Positions 4,092-13,383 of a DNA stretch of 64,000 nucleotides are shown here, one piece after another. The number at the start of each line of letters is the position of its first letter. Within the stretch, counting starts at the first letter, position 1. Below the pieces are notes generated by a model. It was not told the DNA's origin. It saw nothing but the letters and a program-made list of their open reading frames with translations, and ran no database searches. The stretch is taken from contig JAJZZM010000013.1 in the NCBI GenBank assembly GCA_021797555.1, positions 62,001 to 126,000 on the forward strand, in the 5' to 3' direction. The DNA comes from Thermoplasmata archaeon. GTDB taxonomy: Archaea; Thermoplasmatota; Thermoplasmata; Thermoplasmatales; Thermoplasmataceae. The position numbers and the translations under genes are program-made.

Positions 4092-4336
4092 TGATAAGTA
4101 TATTTATATTTATTATATATAATGTTATAAGCAATAATTTTATGTTAATTAACCGGTATACCTGCATTATTTATTTCCATTTAATATTAAATATATGCCT
4201 GTTCAATTTAGCCACAGATTTGTATACGTTAATACTTTAAATTATTTTTATATCAATGGGCTACAGTATTTTTATGGGTTAACTGATAAATATGGTATTA
4301 ATAAAAATATTTTTATAGCCGTTATAATTATATTAA

Positions 4337-4420
4337 ATACCGGGGAGCTTATAAAAGCTGAGAGGATAGGGATCGACCCGTGGAACCTGATCCGGTCAAT
4401 GCCGGCGGAGGGAGAGTGCT
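4337..4420 (+). promoter_or_regulatory. TPP riboswitch (THI box)
   Basis: The conserved parts of the thiamine pyrophosphate aptamer are present in order: GGGGAGC at 4342-4348, GCTGAGA at 4357-4363, the GACCCGTGGAACCTGATC core (4375-4392), and AATGCCGGCGGAGGGA (4398-4413). GCTT/AAGC-type pairing and CCGG/CCGG pairing can be drawn for the P3 and P4/5 arms. A TATA-like TTTTTATA near 4310 would start the transcript just before it. It ends about 36 bases before the ATG of the MFS gene, so it probably controls translation of that carrier. Archaeal THI boxes in front of MFS genes are known from Thermoplasma. Confidence 0.93.
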
Positions 4421-4455
4421 ACGAAAGAAAAATTAAATTTTAACGGGTTTGTACG

Positions 4456-5682
4456 ATGTTAAGTCAGAAGCAGAAATTTATGCTGCTTTCCAGTTCTTCT
4501 GGCCTAACATTCTGGGGAATGATAGCTACATTAGGCCCTTTAGCGGCTGCAGGGTCTCTGATAGGAGTTCTGCCAAAAACATTAAAGGTACTGATACTTC
4601 TAATAGGTCCCATATTTGTTCCGTTTGGCAATATTACAATGGGATTTTTGTCGGATAAAATCGGCAGAAAGAAAATATTTGTAATTACCATGATAATTTA
4701 TAGCATAGGCATATTAATAATATCATTAAGCTATACCTTTACACCATTATTAATCGGGTTATTGCTTGCAGAGTTCGGAGTCGGAGGTGAAGAAATACCG
4801 ACATTGTCACTTGTGTCAGAGGATTCCCCGGTAACGCAGAGGGCAAAGTGGTTAACAATAATATCTGATTTTGATAATATAGGCAGTGCATTAATAGCAG
4901 GGTTATTCATTATAACGGCAAATGTATATTATGATAGGATAATATTATTGTCCTCTGCTGCAGTGCTTGTAATAATAATGATAATTTCAAGATTATTGCT
5001 GCCAGAATCATACAGATGGCTAAATGTAAATGGCAAAAAAACAGAGGCAAAAAAACAGGAATCCGAACTTTACACTGATGGCAATGGGATAGATGTTAAA
5101 AAGCCGCTATATAGATTAAGTTTTCCTGTTTTAATGATAATGGGAATATCACAGTATACAACATTCGGTTTAATGGCCTATATTATAGGGCCATATGAAT
5201 TCCCGGGAATTTATACTGATGATATGATTATATTTGTTGCATTATTGGGTGCTTCTGTGGCAGGTTTTATAGCAGCGCCATTGATAACAAAGGGCAGAAA
5301 AAAATACACATTATATTCTTATTTCTTCGGATTTGTAACAACGGTTCTAATATTTCTTCTAGTTCCATATTTAAAAAATGTTTTGATATTTTATCCTTTA
5401 CTATTTGTGAATATGATGCTAAGTGAATTTGCCTGGGCATCAAGGACAACATTGGAACCTGAACTGGCACCTACAAGGCACCGTGGGCTATTTATTGGCA
5501 CTGTAAGGCTGGCTCCAATGATATCCTACACATTGCTTGTTTTATACACAAGCACCTTAAATTTATATGATTTTGTTTTACTGAATGTATTTCTATGGCT
5601 ATCCGGTTTTATAGGTGCGGCAGTTTGGAACCATTACGGAATAGAAACAAAGGGTGTAAACATAGATTATCAGAATGTTTAA
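4456..5682 (+). CDS. MFS carrier, probable thiamine or thiamine-precursor transporter
   Basis: Major facilitator superfamily protein of 408 residues with about 12 predicted membrane segments. The loop 2-3 signature GFLSDKIGRKKI is at residues 63-74, and RHRGLFIGTVRLAP is in the second half. The general fold resembles the sugar/metabolite porter branch. The substrate is inferred from the TPP riboswitch directly upstream: in Thermoplasma, MFS proteins under THI-box control were predicted as thiamine transporters (ThiT1/ThiT2). No thiamine biosynthesis gene is next to it. The ATG at 4456 follows the riboswitch by about 36 bases. Confidence 0.85.
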   Translation: MLSQKQKFMLLSSSSGLTFWGMIATLGPLAAAGSLIGVLPKTLKVLILLIGPIFVPFGNITMGFLSDKIGRKKIFVITMIIYSIGILIISLSYTFTPLLIGLLLAEFGVGGEEIPTLSLVSEDSPVTQRAKWLTIISDFDNIGSALIAGLFIITANVYYDRIILLSSAAVLVIIMIISRLLLPESYRWLNVNGKKTEAKKQESELYTDGNGIDVKKPLYRLSFPVLMIMGISQYTTFGLMAYIIGPYEFPGIYTDDMIIFVALLGASVAGFIAAPLITKGRKKYTLYSYFFGFVTTVLIFLLVPYLKNVLIFYPLLFVNMMLSEFAWASRTTLEPELAPTRHRGLFIGTVRLAPMISYTLLVLYTSTLNLYDFVLLNVFLWLSGFIGAAVWNHYGIETKGVNIDYQNV

Positions 5683-5755
5683 AATTTTTTATATAATATT
5701 AATAATATGAATAATAAGATTAATATATACTTTTAGCTATTATATAAGGAATATC

Positions 5756-8700
5756 ATGGAAATTAATATAGATGATAACATAAAAAAATGGGAAAAGGAC
5801 ATAATAGATATATCAAAAAATAACAAATTATTATATTTCGATAATAAAAATTTTTTAAGAATACTGTCGCCGTCGATGTCATTTCTATTTGATGATATTG
5901 TTAACAAGGATAAAAAAATGGTATTTAAATTAAATAATGATGACACAAGGAAAAATAATGAAATTGTTATATCAAGAAGAGAAAATATATTAAAATCACT
6001 GAATGAAATGCTTTATAATTCAAGAAATGCGTTGAAAGAACACGGTTCAAATGTTTTATATCTGTCATTTGGCCTTTTAAAATGGTTTGATGAGAATAAT
6101 AATAGTGTAGAAACACAGCTATTCTTTGTTCCTGTTGAAATAAACAGAAAATTATATGACAATTTTTATTTAGAATCAATTGAGGGTGAAATATTTTTTA
6201 ACCCTGTACTGAAGGAGAAGTTAGAACAATTTGGCATAAAGTTTGATTTTGATTTTGATAAAAACCTGAATATTTCTGATGCCATGAAAATTTTTAAATT
6301 AACAGTAAAGGACTCGAAATGGACTGTTAACAATTATATTTATTTAGGAACTTTATCATTTACAAATAACATAATATATAATGATATAAAAAACAATCAC
6401 GAACTTATAAAAAATAATGAATTAACAAGGTCGCTTGCCGGTGACCTTGATATAATAAAAAAGCTAAATGATAAAATGCCGGAAAAAATGGATCGTAATA
6501 TTGATACTGTAATGGATGCAGATTCGAGTCAGTTAAATGCAGTATATGCTGCAGGTTGTGGTGCAAGCTTCATTTTAAATGGCCCACCGGGCACAGGGAA
6601 AAGCCAGACAATTGCAAATATAATTGCAGATTCTATTAAAAACAATAAAAGTGTTTTATTTGTAAGTGAAAAATATGCTGCAATAGACGTTGTTAAAAAA
6701 AGGCTGGAAAAACTCGGTCTTGATGATTATATATTAGAATTTCATGGTAGTAAGCCAAAATCAGAAATAATAAGGTCATTTTATAAATCAATAACCGATA
6801 AAAGTGATATCAGTGAAGAAAAAATGCTGGTAGACCGCTATTCAGATACTTTAAATAATTACGTTAAGGCCATACATTTAAAAAGAGAAAGGTTAAACAT
6901 AAGTATATATGATGCATGCAATATATACCTAAAAAATAAAACCGATTTAACAGTAAAGATAGATGATAAATTATTAGAATTGCCAAGGGACGATTTAGAC
7001 AATATAGAGTTTCAGTTAAGTGAAACGGATGATTATCTTGATATAATTAAAAATTATAAAAAAATTCCGGAGCAGTTCAATATAAATAAATTTAGGGATG
7101 ATAAGGAAACATTTTATAACAATTTAGAAAATTTATTATCTGGCATTGATAAATTAATTGAAAATTCAGGCACAATAAATAAGGTATTAGGCATTGAAAT
7201 AGATAATATAAACTCCCTTGAAAATATTTATAACATAATAAATTTAATAAATAAGGATATTAAACTGGATACTAATTATTTTAATGCCGATTATATAAAT
7301 GAATTGTATTCATTAATAGAAAAGTATGATAAAATAAAATTAGAATATAATTATATGCTTGATATTCTATCAAAGAAAAGGTTACCGGAATTTTTAAATT
7401 TAAACATTTTACAGTTAAGGTCAGATTTCAGGGATATATATAAATCCAGATTAAAAAGGTTATCATCCAGCTATAAAGAATTACTAAATAAAATAATGGA
7501 TCTAACATATGATAAAAACAGGAATAGCTATGATGATATATTAAATGACCTTGACTATGCAGCAAGGATAAAGGATAAGGAAAATGATTTAAAATCTATG
7601 GAAGCTATTATGGATGAAAAAAATATTTCCACGGATGAAAAAGAAAAAATACTGTATGCAAAGAATATTATAAAGATAACAGAAAATATATTAAATGAGA
7701 ATATTAAAAATTTCTTTTCAGATTATAATAATATAGATAATATACTAGTTATAAAGCCACTGTATGAAGATTTAATAAAAAATATGCATTATTTTGATAC
7801 AATGTTCCCTGATATCAATTTAAGTCTGTATAATTTTAACGAAATAAAAAACACTGTGAATAATATACTATCATTTGATATTGAAAGATATGTTAAACTA
7901 TATGACTTAATAGAAGCAATGAAAAATAAGGGAATAGATATATCAATGGCAATGAATGAAAATTTAGCTCCTGGATTGATTTTGCATTCATTCAGATCAG
8001 AATTTTATAAAAAATTTATTATGCATTATGTAAATATTGATGAAAATTTAAAGGATTTCAGGCCATCATCACATGAAAGAATTATAAATATGTTCATATC
8101 ATTCGATAAAAAAAGAATGGATGTCACCAAAAGCAATATAATATACACGCTGCATAAAAATAAAATTGAAACATTAGCGCAGCACCCTGAAATATCAATG
8201 ATGATCAAAACAGAAAATTCAAAGAAAAAATATCAAAAACCGGTAAAAAGATTATTTGATGAAATGGGCAATTTAATGTTTAAATTAAAGCCATGCATAA
8301 TGACCGGCCCAACAAATGTAAGTTCATTCTTCGGCAATAAAATTAGCTTTGATTTATTAATATTTGATGAAGCTTCCCAGTTAACGCCTCCGGAGGCAGT
8401 AGGGTCTCTTCTAAGATCAAAGCAGGTCATTGTTTCAGGGGATACACAGCAGCTGCCTCCAACGCAATTCTTTGAAAATATAAACACAAATAAATATGAT
8501 GAAGATTATGTAGTTCTTGATAACATTTTAGATCAGTTTGATGCTATGGGTTTAAATAAAATATTATTAAAATGGCATTATAGAAGTTTGGATGATAAAT
8601 TAATAGCATTTTCAAATAAATATTTTTATGACAATTTATTAGAATCATTTCCACCGGCATATAAAAATTCTGAGGAAACAGGAATAAAATTTGTTTATGT

Positions 8701-9571
8701 TGAGGGTTTGTATTCCAGGGGTAAAAAAAGAGATAATATAACAGAGGCAAATGAGGTTATAAAAATACTGAAGGAAGAATTAAATTATACCAGTTCAATA
8801 GGGATAGTAACATTAAGTGAATCACAGAGGTCCGCAATAGAGGATGTTTTGCTTGACTATTCAAAAAATGACAATGTATTATCTGAAATATTGAATAATG
8901 GCGATATTTTTGTTAAAAACCTGGAAAATGTTCAGGGTGATGAAAAGGACGTAATAATTTTAAGCATAGGGTACGGAAAGGATGAAAACGGAAAATTAAC
9001 AATGAACTTCGGTCCAATAAATGCAGCAGGTGGAGAGAAAAGATTGAATGTTGCAATAACAAGAGCAAGAAAAAAAATTATAATTGTATCATCAATAAGG
9101 GCAGAGGATATAAGGTTACCATTAAATTCCGGCAAGGGTCCTGAACTGCTAAAAAAATATATAAATTTTGCAACAAATAAGAACAATACGGATTTCAGGG
9201 TGTTTAAAAACAATGATGAGATTATAAATAATATATCACGGAGTCTCGAGAAAAATGGATTTATCACGGAAAAGGATGTAGGTTTTTCAGGTAACAATAT
9301 AGCACTGGCAGTAATAGACCCCGAAAATGAAAATCATTATATTTTAGGCATAGAAACCGATGGCCATGTTTATAGCAGCATGAAAACTGCCTCTGAAAGG
9401 GAAAGAATAAGGAATCAAATATTAAAAAGCCGTGGGTGGAATTTATACCGTGTCTGGTCAGTAGATTACATAAAAAACCCAGAAAGTGTTATTCATGATA
9501 TTATAAATAACATAAATAAAATAAATTTTAAAAAGTTAGATGAAAAAAATAGCGCTGGGAGGGAGATTTGA
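5756..9571 (+). CDS. DUF4011 / SF1 helicase / Vsr-like nuclease protein (Hhe-like defence candidate)
   Basis: A 1271-residue multidomain protein. The N-terminal ~200 residues look like DUF4011 (DIIDISKNNKLLYFDN; VETQLFFVPVEI). An SF1 (Upf1-like, AAA_11/AAA_12) helicase follows: Walker A GPPGTGKS at residues 276-283, a long coiled insert to about 830, Walker B FDEASQ near 870, GDTQQLPP, QGDEKDVIILS near 1062 and VAITRARKK near 1100. The C-terminal ~100 residues are a Vsr-like endonuclease (MTES_1575 type): ETDGHVYSS, then ERERIRNQIL and GWNLYRVWSVDY. This order matches the single-gene Hhe antiphage system as I recall it. A TATA-like TTAATATATA lies 26-35 bases upstream. The last codons lie inside a tRNA-Ser gene on the other strand. 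Confidence 0.88.
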   Translation: MEINIDDNIKKWEKDIIDISKNNKLLYFDNKNFLRILSPSMSFLFDDIVNKDKKMVFKLNNDDTRKNNEIVISRRENILKSLNEMLYNSRNALKEHGSNVLYLSFGLLKWFDENNNSVETQLFFVPVEINRKLYDNFYLESIEGEIFFNPVLKEKLEQFGIKFDFDFDKNLNISDAMKIFKLTVKDSKWTVNNYIYLGTLSFTNNIIYNDIKNNHELIKNNELTRSLAGDLDIIKKLNDKMPEKMDRNIDTVMDADSSQLNAVYAAGCGASFILNGPPGTGKSQTIANIIADSIKNNKSVLFVSEKYAAIDVVKKRLEKLGLDDYILEFHGSKPKSEIIRSFYKSITDKSDISEEKMLVDRYSDTLNNYVKAIHLKRERLNISIYDACNIYLKNKTDLTVKIDDKLLELPRDDLDNIEFQLSETDDYLDIIKNYKKIPEQFNINKFRDDKETFYNNLENLLSGIDKLIENSGTINKVLGIEIDNINSLENIYNIINLINKDIKLDTNYFNADYINELYSLIEKYDKIKLEYNYMLDILSKKRLPEFLNLNILQLRSDFRDIYKSRLKRLSSSYKELLNKIMDLTYDKNRNSYDDILNDLDYAARIKDKENDLKSMEAIMDEKNISTDEKEKILYAKNIIKITENILNENIKNFFSDYNNIDNILVIKPLYEDLIKNMHYFDTMFPDINLSLYNFNEIKNTVNNILSFDIERYVKLYDLIEAMKNKGIDISMAMNENLAPGLILHSFRSEFYKKFIMHYVNIDENLKDFRPSSHERIINMFISFDKKRMDVTKSNIIYTLHKNKIETLAQHPEISMMIKTENSKKKYQKPVKRLFDEMGNLMFKLKPCIMTGPTNVSSFFGNKISFDLLIFDEASQLTPPEAVGSLLRSKQVIVSGDTQQLPPTQFFENINTNKYDEDYVVLDNILDQFDAMGLNKILLKWHYRSLDDKLIAFSNKYFYDNLLESFPPAYKNSEETGIKFVYVEGLYSRGKKRDNITEANEVIKILKEELNYTSSIGIVTLSESQRSAIEDVLLDYSKNDNVLSEILNNGDIFVKNLENVQGDEKDVIILSIGYGKDENGKLTMNFGPINAAGGEKRLNVAITRARKKIIIVSSIRAEDIRLPLNSGKGPELLKKYINFATNKNNTDFRVFKNNDEIINNISRSLEKNGFITEKDVGFSGNNIALAVIDPENENHYILGIETDGHVYSSMKTASERERIRNQILKSRGWNLYRVWSVDYIKNPESVIHDIINNINKINFKKLDEKNSAGREI

Positions 9572-9636
9572 ACTCCCGGGCTCTTACGAGCACAGGTTTT
9601 CCAGACCTGCGTCTTACCAGGCTAGGCTATCCCAGC
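9553..9636 (-). tRNA. tRNA-Ser (anticodon GGA)
   Basis: An 84-nt type II tRNA on the minus strand. The acceptor stem GCTGGGA/TCCCAGC pairs fully with G discriminator, as expected for serine. The anticodon stem CAGGT/ACCTG encloses CT-GGA-AA, giving anticodon GGA. The long variable arm GCTCGTAAGAGC forms a hairpin, and the T arm is GGGAG/CTCCC with loop TTCAAAT. CCA is not encoded. The helicase CDS on the plus strand ends 19 bases inside its 3' end. Confidence 0.95.
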
Positions 9637-10194: not shown

Positions 10195-11154
10195 ATGGAA
10201 ACAGTTAATCAAAGTGATAAATATATATCGAAAGAAATAGAGATGACAATAAGGCATCTGTCCGATGAAAAAGTCAGGCATGCAATAATAGTCCAGGGCT
10301 ATATCCGGCAATATGTATCTGATTTTCTGAGGTTAAAAGGCTACATTGAAATATCGCCAATTATAATATCACCTCTAACAGACCCATTAAACCATCCTGT
10401 ATACGATCCAATGATACATGCATACGGTGGCGATATGTGGATTACCAAAAGCATGATATTCCATAAGCAAATAGCTGTACAGGAACTAAAAAAGATTTTT
10501 ATAATGTCACCAAACATAAGATTGGAGGAGGAGAAAAGAGCAGAAACAGGAAGGCATTTATATGAATTTACGCAGATAGATATAGAAGCCTTAGAAAAGT
10601 CAAGGGAAGATATGATGGACCTTGCCGAAGATTTAATTATATACACAATAGGCAGAATAAAGAAGGAGCATCCTGAAGAATTAAAATATTTCCATAGGGA
10701 ATTGCCTGATTATAAAAAACCATTTGATAAAATAACATATTTAGATGCAGAGAAAAAATATGGTAAAGACTTTGAAAGAAAGTTATCACTGGAAGCAAAA
10801 TCACCTGTATGGCTAATCGATATACCATTAAAGGAGAGAGAATTCTATGATCGTGAGTATCCTGATAAACCAGGCATATTAAGGGATATGGATTTAATAT
10901 ACCCTGAAGGATATCAGGAGGCTTCATCAGGTGGTGAAAGGGAATTTGAACTATCAAAAATACTTGAAAGAATACATAAAAAAGGTCAGACAGAAGATCA
11001 GTTTAAATGGTTTATTGAATTAGCGAAACATGGCATAAAACTATCAACGGGCTTTGGCATAGGAATAGAAAGATTCACAAGATTTGTCTGCGGTGTTGAA
11101 AAAATAGAAGATGTATCACCATTTCCTAAAATACCAGGTAAAATATCGTTATAA
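10195..11154 (+). CDS. Archaeal asparagine synthetase (asparaginyl-tRNA synthetase-related)
   Basis: A 319-residue class II synthetase catalytic core without an anticodon-binding domain, like the AsnRS-related asparagine synthetase (AS-AR) of Pyrococcus abyssi, which makes asparagine from aspartate, ammonia and ATP. Visible motifs: motif 1 region with GYIEISPIIISPLTDP, motif 2 region FIMSPNIRLEEEKRAETGRH ending in YEFTQIDIE, and motif 3 GFGIGIERFTRFVCG near the C-terminus. The missing N-terminal OB fold argues against a true AsnRS. It is leaderless from a good TATA box and divergent from an Lrp/AsnC regulator. The last 24 bases and the downstream region are duplicated about 2.07 kb further on. 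Confidence 0.85.
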   Translation: METVNQSDKYISKEIEMTIRHLSDEKVRHAIIVQGYIRQYVSDFLRLKGYIEISPIIISPLTDPLNHPVYDPMIHAYGGDMWITKSMIFHKQIAVQELKKIFIMSPNIRLEEEKRAETGRHLYEFTQIDIEALEKSREDMMDLAEDLIIYTIGRIKKEHPEELKYFHRELPDYKKPFDKITYLDAEKKYGKDFERKLSLEAKSPVWLIDIPLKEREFYDREYPDKPGILRDMDLIYPEGYQEASSGGEREFELSKILERIHKKGQTEDQFKWFIELAKHGIKLSTGFGIGIERFTRFVCGVEKIEDVSPFPKIPGKISL

Positions 11155-11283
11155 TTTTATTGAAATAATTATAAATAATATACCAAGGAAAATAAATAAT
11201 TTATTATTTTATTATTGTATTTTAAATGCAGGAATGAGAATATTTTAATTTTATTTCCATTTTTTATGAATATGCCATTGCAT
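11131..11283. repeat. Left copy of a ~155-bp direct repeat (spans the 3' end of the asparagine synthetase gene)
   Basis: This stretch, from ATACCAGGTAAAATATC through GAATATGCCATTGCAT, recurs at 13204-13360 in the same orientation with a few substitutions and a 4-base insertion. The left copy includes the true last codons of the synthetase gene, so it is the source and the right copy a duplicate. The two copies bracket the AAA_14/DUF4143 ATPase gene. The 327-base gap to that gene otherwise holds only AT-rich sequence. Confidence 0.9.
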
Positions 11284-11481
11284 TTGTTGATTATTCATAG
11301 CTGTTTCGGTCCTGTTAAATCAAGATATAAATATATTATAATGTGAATGGGAATGGTATAAAATAATTTTATTCCATAGTTATGCTGCATAAAAAATTAA
11401 ATTGCCATAGTGTATAGGAATATATATGCATAATATTTAATATACTGCATAAATTTTTATGTTTTCATGTAATATAATATC

Positions 11482-12753
11482 ATGAATAATGTTATGGAAG
11501 CTGTACAGAGATCTAAAAACTATCTGGAGTACTTTTTGAAGCAGGATTTTATCAAGAGAAAAATAAAAATAGACCCCAATACTTTTTCAGGCACAATAAT
11601 AAAGGTAATAATAGGGCCCAGAAGGTCAGGAAAATCAACATTTACTATTATGAATTTGGCAGGTAAAAAAGCAGCATACCTGAATTTTGATGATGAAGTT
11701 CTGTTGAAGGAAAAAAATTATAATAATTATTTAAAATATATAAACGAAATATATGGCAAAAGCATATTTCTTATACTTGACGAAATTCAGAATTTGCCAG
11801 AATGGGAAATTTTTGTAAACAGGCTTCAGAGAGAGAATTACAATCTGTTTATAACTGGTTCAAATTCATCATTATTAAGTGGAGAGCTTGCAAGCCATTT
11901 AACAGGGCGCTATGCACAGATTACAGTACTGCCATTCTCTTTCAGGGAAATCCTGGATTTTCACAATGTAAAAACAGATTTAAATTCCATGGTTGCTGAG
12001 GAATACGGAACAATATTAAATTTTCTGGATATATATATGTTTATGGGAGGATTTCCAGAAATTATTGTGAAAAATTATGATGCAAGAACATACCTGCAAA
12101 CACTGGTTGAAAATATCATTTATAAGGACATAGTTGCCAGATATGGAATAAGGCACAGTACTGGGATAATTGATATGGCAAATTACCTTATAAACTCCTA
12201 TTCTGGTGAGGTTACAGGCAATTCTGCCGCAATGGCCTGTGGAATAAATAGTGTACACACAGCCCTAAACTATATGAAATATATTTCCAGCTCATTTTTA
12301 GTATTCTTTGTTGAACGACTTTCTTTTAAATCCAGAGTAAGAATAAATTCTCCAAAGAAGGTATATTGCATAGATAATGGAATAATTTCCTTATACGCGT
12401 TCAGGCACAGTGAGGATATGGGAAAAATAATGGAAAATACTGTAGCAATTGAACTCCTGAGGCGTAGCAGTTTAATGGTAGAATTTAATTTTTATTACTG
12501 GAGAAATGAAAACAACAAAGAGGTTGATTTCGTTATAAAACGTGGAATAAAAATTATTGAGTTAATCAACGTGAGCTATATTACGTCAGGAGGTGATATA
12601 AAAAAGAGGGAGCTTGATAGTATTATTTCTGCATCAAGGGAAATGAACTGTGATAATTTAATAATAATAACATGGGACTATGAGAAAGCTATGGATATCA
12701 ATGGAACCAGGATTAAGTGCATTCCACTCTGGAAGTGGTTGATCGCAGAGTAG
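11482..12753 (+). CDS. AAA_14/DUF4143 family ATPase
   Basis: A 423-residue protein of the archaeal/bacterial ATPase family with an N-terminal AAA_14 domain and a C-terminal DUF4143 domain. Walker A is GPRRSGKST near residue 49, Walker B LILDEIQNLPEWE near 95, a sensor-like ITGSNSSLLSGELA, then the TGR motif and VLPFSFREIL. The C-terminal part has a degenerate PD-(D/E)xK-like core: FYYWRNENNKEVDFVIKRG, ending in the expected EVDFV. Such genes are numerous in Thermoplasmatales and often linked to mobile or toxin-like loci, but their role is unclear. It lies alone, bracketed by a direct repeat, which suggests acquisition together with the flanking duplication. Confidence 0.85.
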   Translation: MNNVMEAVQRSKNYLEYFLKQDFIKRKIKIDPNTFSGTIIKVIIGPRRSGKSTFTIMNLAGKKAAYLNFDDEVLLKEKNYNNYLKYINEIYGKSIFLILDEIQNLPEWEIFVNRLQRENYNLFITGSNSSLLSGELASHLTGRYAQITVLPFSFREILDFHNVKTDLNSMVAEEYGTILNFLDIYMFMGGFPEIIVKNYDARTYLQTLVENIIYKDIVARYGIRHSTGIIDMANYLINSYSGEVTGNSAAMACGINSVHTALNYMKYISSSFLVFFVERLSFKSRVRINSPKKVYCIDNGIISLYAFRHSEDMGKIMENTVAIELLRRSSLMVEFNFYYWRNENNKEVDFVIKRGIKIIELINVSYITSGGDIKKRELDSIISASREMNCDNLIIITWDYEKAMDINGTRIKCIPLWKWLIAE

Positions 12754-12888
12754 TTAAGACATTTATTTATATTATCATGGTTACTACTGCAAAAATATGC
12801 TGTTTTCCACCCTAAATGTAATATTACAATTTTCAGTCCCAGTGGGAATTGCAGAATTCATGGCATTAAATATGTATGCCCATATTAA

Positions 12889-13131
12889 TATGAATTATTA
12901 ATATATAATTATTATAGATTCAGAACCTATGCAATATTATTTAAGGATCACTTATTTTCCTATTCCTTTAATAATAAAATTCCACCGTTTTTATTTACAC
13001 TGCAAATAGGCTTTATAATTACCTATCTTATAGTTTTAATTGCAGTACTCGCCGGTATCATGTCAGTAAGTTTTTCAGGCATTGTTCCTGGATTTATCTT
13101 CTTAACTGGTTATTTACTGAATAACTATTGA
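12889..13131 (+). pseudogene. Membrane-protein fragment without a start codon
   Basis: An open frame of about 80 codons with coherent protein-like content: YAILFKDHLFSYSFNNKIPP, then a hydrophobic helix FTLQIGFIITYLIVLIAVLA and a second one SGIVPGFIFLTGYLL before the stop. There is no plausible ATG in the first half and a stop lies directly upstream. It reads like the C-terminal part of a two- or multi-helix membrane protein left after deletion. The family is not recognised. The remaining 12754-12888 stretch holds nothing I can name. Confidence 0.4.
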
Positions 13132-13203
13132 TATATATGATTAAATATTACACCCGTCTAACATTTATATAAAATTGCACATCAGCAATAGCTGTTCCCA
13201 GAA

Positions 13204-13360
13204 ATACCCGGTAAAATATCATTATGATTCTATTGAAATAATTATAAATAATAGGCCAAGGAAAATAAATAAATAATTTATTATTTTATTATTGTATTTT
13301 AAATGCAGGAATGAGAATATTTTAATTTTATTTCCATTTTTTATGAATATGCCATTGCAT
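13204..13360. repeat. Right copy of the ~155-bp direct repeat
   Basis: Starts with ATACCCGGTAAAATATC and runs to GAATATGCCATTGCAT, matching 11131-11283. It carries the former last codons of the asparagine synthetase gene without the rest of the gene. Differences are a few substitutions and an extra AAAT-type unit in the AT-rich centre. Confidence 0.9.
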
Positions 13361-13383
13361 GTGAATGCATCAAGAAATAGATG

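What the first reader, a model, noticed from the sequence alone, without database searches (positions are those of the whole stretch)
5756..9571. Hhe-like single-gene defence candidate in a Thermoplasmatales chromosome
The domain order DUF4011, SF1 helicase, Vsr-like nuclease with an intact ETDG-type active site matches the Hhe architecture tested as an antiphage system in bacteria (from memory: Gao and co-workers, 2020). It lies alone with no restriction-modification partner and ends in a tRNA gene, as an accessory gene would. Archaeal versions may be undescribed functionally.
Basis: partly seen in the sequence, partly recalled or inferred. Interest (0 to 1): 0.72.

Follow-up and report, generated by a model that had tools for sequence, protein, structure and literature searches.

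The report
Core archaeal helicase with crippled nuclease
A large DNA-unwinding protein from the Hhe/ProA family of anti-virus proteins has become a fixed, inherited gene in one clade of acid-loving archaea, and it has lost the key residue its cutting domain needs, so it is probably neither an optional gene nor a self-sufficient DNA-cutting defence.

Summary
The 1271-aa ORF (5756-9571, +) is real and has the stated domain order: DUF4011, SF1 (Upf1-like) helicase, Vsr-like MTES_1575 domain. Two inferences from it fail. (1) The nuclease site is not intact. ETDG remains, but the motif II aspartate (Vsr D51 equivalent), present in 61 of 62 dereplicated relatives from bacteria, plasmids, viral contigs and other archaea, is Ala or Pro in all 8 dereplicated members of this clade; the motif I Glu is also gone. 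The helicase motifs are intact. (2) It is not accessory. It is single-copy in all 8 near-complete genomes of the genus, in the same MFS-gene-tRNA-Ser-Lrp-AsnA setting. It is present in all 13 sampled genomes of one supported EF-2 clade (three genera) and in none of 13 sampled sister genomes. Its gene tree agrees with the species tree, and it is under purifying selection (dN/dS 0.12; dS as in flanking genes). Its closest described families are PDC-S37 (PADLOC) and ProA (NCBIfam), ahead of Hhe; it falls below both NCBIfam cut-offs. Best reading: a vertically fixed, probably nuclease-dead variant acting as a nucleic-acid translocase, in genome maintenance or core immunity. Which of the two is untested.

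The parts
5756..9571 (+). Whole gene, 1271 aa: DUF4011 - SF1 helicase - Vsr-like (MTES_1575) protein of the PDC-S37/ProA/Hhe family
5804..6223 (+). DUF4011 domain (aa 17-156)
   Evidence: Pfam PF13195, E 2.8e-20
6581..6604 (+). Walker A GPPGTGKS (aa 276-283), intact in every full-length clade member
6776..8200 (+). About 475-aa AT-rich spacer between helicase motifs (aa 341-815), the fastest-evolving part (dN/dS 0.17)
8201..9145 (+). Second part of the SF1 helicase (aa 816-1130): FDEASQ, GDTQQLPP, NVQGDEKD, RLNVAITRARK all intact
   Evidence: Pfam AAA_11/AAA_12; alignments
9230..9514 (+). Vsr-like PD-(D/E)XK domain (REase_MTES_1575, aa 1159-1253)
   Evidence: Pfam PF18741, E 1.3e-22; model pLDDT 84, Foldseek best matches 3hrl and 3r3p
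9224..9226 (+). Codon of I1157: position of the motif I Glu (Vsr E25-like), E in 44/62 relatives, never E in the clade
9302..9304 (+). Codon of A1183: position of the motif II Asp (Vsr D51-like), D in 61/62 relatives, A or P in 8/8 clade members
9353..9364 (+). E1200-T-D1202-G1203, the retained ETDG motif
9552..9636 (-). tRNA-Ser(GGA), overlapping the gene's last codons; the overlap is conserved in the genus, and members not next to this tRNA lack the SAGREI tail

Best explanation
This is a chromosomal, vertically inherited member of the DUF4011-SF1 helicase-Vsr family (PDC-S37/ProA/Hhe) that entered, or was kept in, the ancestor of one Thermoplasmatales clade (probably Ferroplasma-Acidiplasma-Picrophilus) and has been fixed since. 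Its helicase is intact; its C-terminal Vsr-like domain keeps the fold but lacks the metal-binding motif II Asp and the motif I Glu, so it most likely cannot cut. Most likely mechanism: the protein binds nucleic acid through DUF4011 and the dead nuclease domain and uses ATP to move along it and strip or unwind it, in genome surveillance or repair, with cutting (if any) done by another protein. Shown here: anatomy, loss of the Asp, fixation, vertical descent, purifying selection. Inferred: loss of cleavage, nucleic-acid translocation, and a maintenance rather than purely antiviral role.
For: Domains. Motif II Asp in 61/62 dereplicated relatives and 0/8 clade members; helicase motifs unchanged. 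Vsr active-site set E25, D51, H64, H69, D97 and its mapping onto a DUF559 relative: PMC12907096. The domain models as a Vsr/DUF559-type fold, top Foldseek matches 3hrl and 3r3p. Present in 8/8 near-complete genomes of the genus, one copy each. Syntenic block MFS-gene-tRNA-Ser-Lrp-AsnA. Carriers form exactly one EF-2 clade, support 100/99, 13/13 inside and 0/13 in the sister genomes sampled. The gene tree has the same branching. dN/dS 0.12 with dS similar to neighbouring genes, dN/dS 0.11-0.12 in the nuclease-like domain. Neighbours are metabolic in all three genera and never a defence island. The clade Picrophilus-Ferroplasma-Acidiplasma and strong gene loss in Picrophilus are described in PMC10354927; keeping the gene there would argue for constant use.
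Against: No biochemistry. ETDG, E1214 and R1215 stay conserved, which could mean residual or altered catalysis. Motif I Glu and motif III Glu also vary in relatives that keep the Asp, so the site is plastic. The closest named families are labelled antiphage, and a defence gene can become fixed. The gene is absent from most genera of the family, so it is not a universal repair factor.
Confidence: 0.5

Rival explanations
1. Core immunity: the protein is still antiviral, fixed in the clade, and acts without its own cutting, for example by helicase-driven displacement on invading DNA or by handing DNA to host nucleases.
For: Best matches are PDC-S37 and ProA/Hhe, families labelled defence. Relatives lie on plasmids and in viral or prophage contigs. 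In Hachiman the helicase is the sensor of damaged DNA and the nuclease a separate effector (PMC12278908, abstract). In P. aeruginosa a large DUF4011 gene is also core, beside a defence hotspot (PMC10250203).
Against: No defence neighbours in the genera scanned. dN/dS is low throughout and shows no diversifying domain. Fixation and synteny are unusual for a defence gene.
Confidence: 0.28
2. The nuclease is still active with a rearranged site (E1200, D1202, E1214 and neighbours), so the protein is an ordinary helicase-nuclease of the ProA/PDC-S37 kind.
For: ETDG, E1214 and R1215 are invariant in the clade. The domain is under purifying selection. Active-site residues migrate in some PD-(D/E)XK families (PMC1913061).
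Against: The motif II Asp is, with D1202, the most conserved acidic residue of the domain, and no new acidic residue conserved in the clade replaces it.
Confidence: 0.12
3. An RNA-acting factor: a Upf1-like helicase with a RAP-like, RNA-binding C-terminal domain, working on RNA or ribosome quality control.
For: Best sequence matches in the PDB are Upf1/SMUBP2; the profile of the C-terminal domain matches RAP proteins of the Toxoplasma mitoribosome (E 7e-7), also seen by fold.
Against: Upf1-like helicases act on DNA too; no translation gene is consistently linked apart from the tRNA, and that link is absent in two sampled g2 genomes and in g13.
Confidence: 0.06
4. One reading: an accessory, horizontally moving single-gene Hhe defence system with an intact nuclease, parked at a tRNA gene.
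For: Domain order; overlap with a tRNA gene; relatives on plasmids.
Against: Fixed, syntenic and vertical; site not intact; Hhe cut-off missed by 1400 bits; no att-like repeat and no integrase among the neighbours scanned.
Confidence: 0.04

Closest known systems
PDC-S37 (PADLOC phage-defence candidate, single gene)
   Same: Best PADLOC model, 910 bits over residues 1-1263; single gene; DUF4011-helicase-Vsr
   Different: A candidate only, no test known to me and no paper in the library names it; this clade lacks the motif II Asp
ProA (NCBIfam NF058533)
   Same: Best NCBIfam model, 904 bits, residues 64-1266
   Different: Below the curated cut-off of 1500; model of 1903 positions against 1271 aa here
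Hhe (Gao and co-workers 2020, from memory; NCBIfam NF042953)
   Same: DUF4011, SF1 helicase, MTES_1575 in the same order
   Different: 591 bits against a cut-off of 2000; a Klebsiella protein annotated Hhe is 1911 aa with the full E/D/ECDG..H site and is 26% identical to this one in the alignment
Vsr / I-Bth0305I / DUF559 nucleases
   Same: Fold of the C-terminal domain
   Different: E25- and D51-like residues lost

Membership tests
Hhe | DUF4011 - SF1 helicase - Vsr-like domain order | tested here: met
Hhe | NCBIfam equivalog cut-off (2000 bits) | tested here: not met
   590.6 bits; none of 390 genomes of the phylum passes
Hhe | Complete nuclease active site (E, D, ExDG) | tested here: not met
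   I1157, A1183, ETDG kept
Hhe | Antiphage activity | not testable with these tools
   needs infection assays
ProA | NCBIfam equivalog cut-off (1500 bits) | tested here: not met
   903.8 bits
PDC-S37 | Match to PADLOC model PDLC05009 over most of its length | tested here: met
   E 8.4e-274, model 1-1348 of 1550; PADLOC's own calling thresholds were not available
SF1 Upf1-like helicases | Motifs I, II, III, V, VI | tested here: met
Active PD-(D/E)XK (Vsr-type) nuclease | Motif II Asp | tested here: not met
   A1183; D in 61/62 relatives
Accessory or mobile defence gene | Patchy presence among close relatives, unstable site | tested here: not met
   8/8 in genus, one clade, conserved neighbours

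The most novel reading that the evidence does not exclude
An antiphage-type helicase-nuclease was domesticated once in the ancestor of a hyperacidophilic archaeal clade: it lost cleavage, kept the motor, and became a fixed genome-maintenance or core-immunity factor, a nuclease-dead branch of the Hhe/ProA family.
Probability: 0.4. Interest if true: 0.62.

Novelty: new variant of a known kind. Interest (0 to 1): 0.45.

Why it matters
Annotation by domain order would count this gene as a defence nuclease in every genome of the clade; the missing Asp and its core status say otherwise. It offers a natural test of what the DUF4011-helicase part does without cutting, which is not known for Hhe or ProA as far as I could find (only three papers in the library mention DUF4011). 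It may also be a case of a defence effector turned into a core gene.

Tried and rejected
Integration at the tRNA: no copy of the tRNA 3' end other than the two tRNA-Ser genes themselves. Co-located defence genes: none found in g1 or g13 apart from the AAA_14 insertion. Close relatives in viral contigs with the window protein alone: none; an alignment query found 31 distant ones. Folding the nuclease domain without relatives gave a poor model (pLDDT 50); with 24 rows it was good (84). Annotated phage records hold one family member and two plain helicase matches. Literature on PDC-S37 or archaeal DUF4011: none found. Considered and rejected: plain DNA2-like helicase without the end domains (Pfam finds both); pseudogene (open frame and low dN/dS).

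Full report
What is there. The ORF at 5756-9571 (+) codes for 1271 aa. Pfam finds DUF4011 (17-156), the two halves of an SF1 helicase, and REase_MTES_1575 (1159-1253), all above cut-off. PADLOC's best model is the candidate family PDC-S37 (910 bits, residues 1-1263), then Hhe (427 bits). NCBIfam's best are ProA (904 bits, cut-off 1500) and Hhe (591 bits, cut-off 2000). It is therefore a relative of both but a member of neither by the curated cut-offs. In a sample of 390 genomes of the phylum none passes the Hhe cut-off.

The nuclease site. I compared the C-terminal domain with relatives from plasmids (haloarchaea, Bacteroides, cyanobacteria, Proteobacteria, including a protein annotated as Hhe in Klebsiella), other Thermoplasmata and viral contigs. 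The consensus is FE ... Y-R-[IV]-D-L-A ... [IV]ECDG..YH ... ARDRDRLR. The motif II Asp is present in 61 of 62 relatives dereplicated at 90%. In the eight dereplicated members of this clade it is Ala (4) or Pro (4); the motif I Glu is Ile or Thr; E1200, D1202 and G1203 of ETDG are kept. In E. coli Vsr the active-site residues are E25, D51, H64, H69 and D97, and they have been mapped onto a DUF559 relative (PMC12907096). By my reading of that mapping, the E25, D51 and H69 equivalents are gone here, H64 corresponds to the kept D1202, and D97 may correspond to E1214. The E25 and H69 positions vary in relatives too, so the Asp is the telling one. The single other exception is L089 (genome G448, Gly), apparently an independent loss. 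The helicase motifs are unchanged in all clade members. [quoted passage not shown] E 0.007 and 0.012). The fold is kept; the site is not.

Core, not accessory. One full-length copy occurs in every near-complete genome of the genus (8/8; 9/10 overall with one cut by a contig end, the tenth genome being 80% complete). In the genus the block CobB-CbiG ... MFS - gene - tRNA-Ser(GGA) - Lrp - AsnA is preserved wherever the contig is long enough. In genus g2 one genome keeps the tRNA side and two keep the MFS side; in g13 the gene sits with CobN and PyrD. In genera without the gene the tRNA-Ser-Lrp-AsnA cluster exists without it (g3, g9). On an EF-2 tree the 13 carriers form exactly one clade with support 100/99, and none of the 13 sampled sister genomes in the family carries a full family member. 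G050 also carries it, in two pieces on two contigs, but its EF-2 fragment was too short for the tree. The gene tree on the helicase core repeats that order. Against its 80% identical relatives dN/dS is 0.12, and dS (about 0.9) is like that of the neighbours (0.8-1.2, CbiG 0.57), so the gene is as old in place as they are; the nuclease-like domain has 0.11-0.12 and the spacer 0.17. There is no sign of decay or of diversifying selection at this resolution.

The tRNA overlap. The last six codons (SAGREI) lie almost entirely in the antisense of tRNA-Ser(GGA). Clade members that are not next to this tRNA lack the tail (L041, L042, L043). So the overlap is a feature of position, inherited in the genus, not a mark of recent integration; no att-like duplicate was found.

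How it most likely works. Shown: intact motor motifs, broken site, fixation. Inferred: ATP-driven movement on nucleic acid with the Vsr-like domain as a binding module. I lean to genome surveillance or repair because the gene is fixed, vertical, evenly constrained and lies among metabolic genes. Core immunity without self-cutting is the main rival. Hachiman shows that in a defence system the helicase can be the damage sensor (PMC12278908), and a large DUF4011 gene is core in P. aeruginosa beside a defence hotspot (PMC10250203). The genome also has a Cas1, so other defences exist. No experiment decides between these.

Compared with what is known. In domain order it works like the Hhe/ProA/PDC-S37 proteins. 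As to membership, it fails the curated cut-offs of Hhe and ProA and lacks the catalytic Asp; it matches the PADLOC candidate model PDC-S37 over nearly its whole length. I therefore file it as a nuclease-degenerate, vertically fixed variant of that family, not as an Hhe system.

Limits. The 61/62 count depends on the relatives fetched and on alignment, but residue 1183 is clear in all alignments made. NG86 dS near 0.9 is approaching saturation. Loss of cleavage is predicted, not measured.

Noticed in passing
window 11122-13363: An AAA_14/DUF4143 ATPase gene (11482-12753, PADLOC candidate PDC-S01) lies between two direct repeats of about 165 bp (11122-11286 and 13195-13363) that include the 3' end of AsnA. 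The AsnA to tRNA-Ser(CGA) distance is 2582 bp here and 514 bp in two 80%-identical relatives (L002, L003), so this is the true accessory insertion of the region.
   Followed up: partly
window 4331-5682: A TPP riboswitch (64.5 bits) directly precedes the MFS transporter gene upstream of the finding, suggesting a thiamine transporter.
   Followed up: no
L080-L088 (genomes of family f8, same class): A roughly 1250-aa relative recurs in many f8 genomes, with the motif II Asp but CDS, SDS or SDT in place of CDG; it looks like another core variant of the family.
   Followed up: partly
L089 (G448) 5564-9559: Second, apparently independent loss of the motif II Asp (Gly) together with ETDG.
   Followed up: no
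L092 3334-8208 and 8252-12802 (G303); also G326: Two different DUF4011-helicase-Vsr proteins encoded side by side in family f10 genomes.
   Followed up: no
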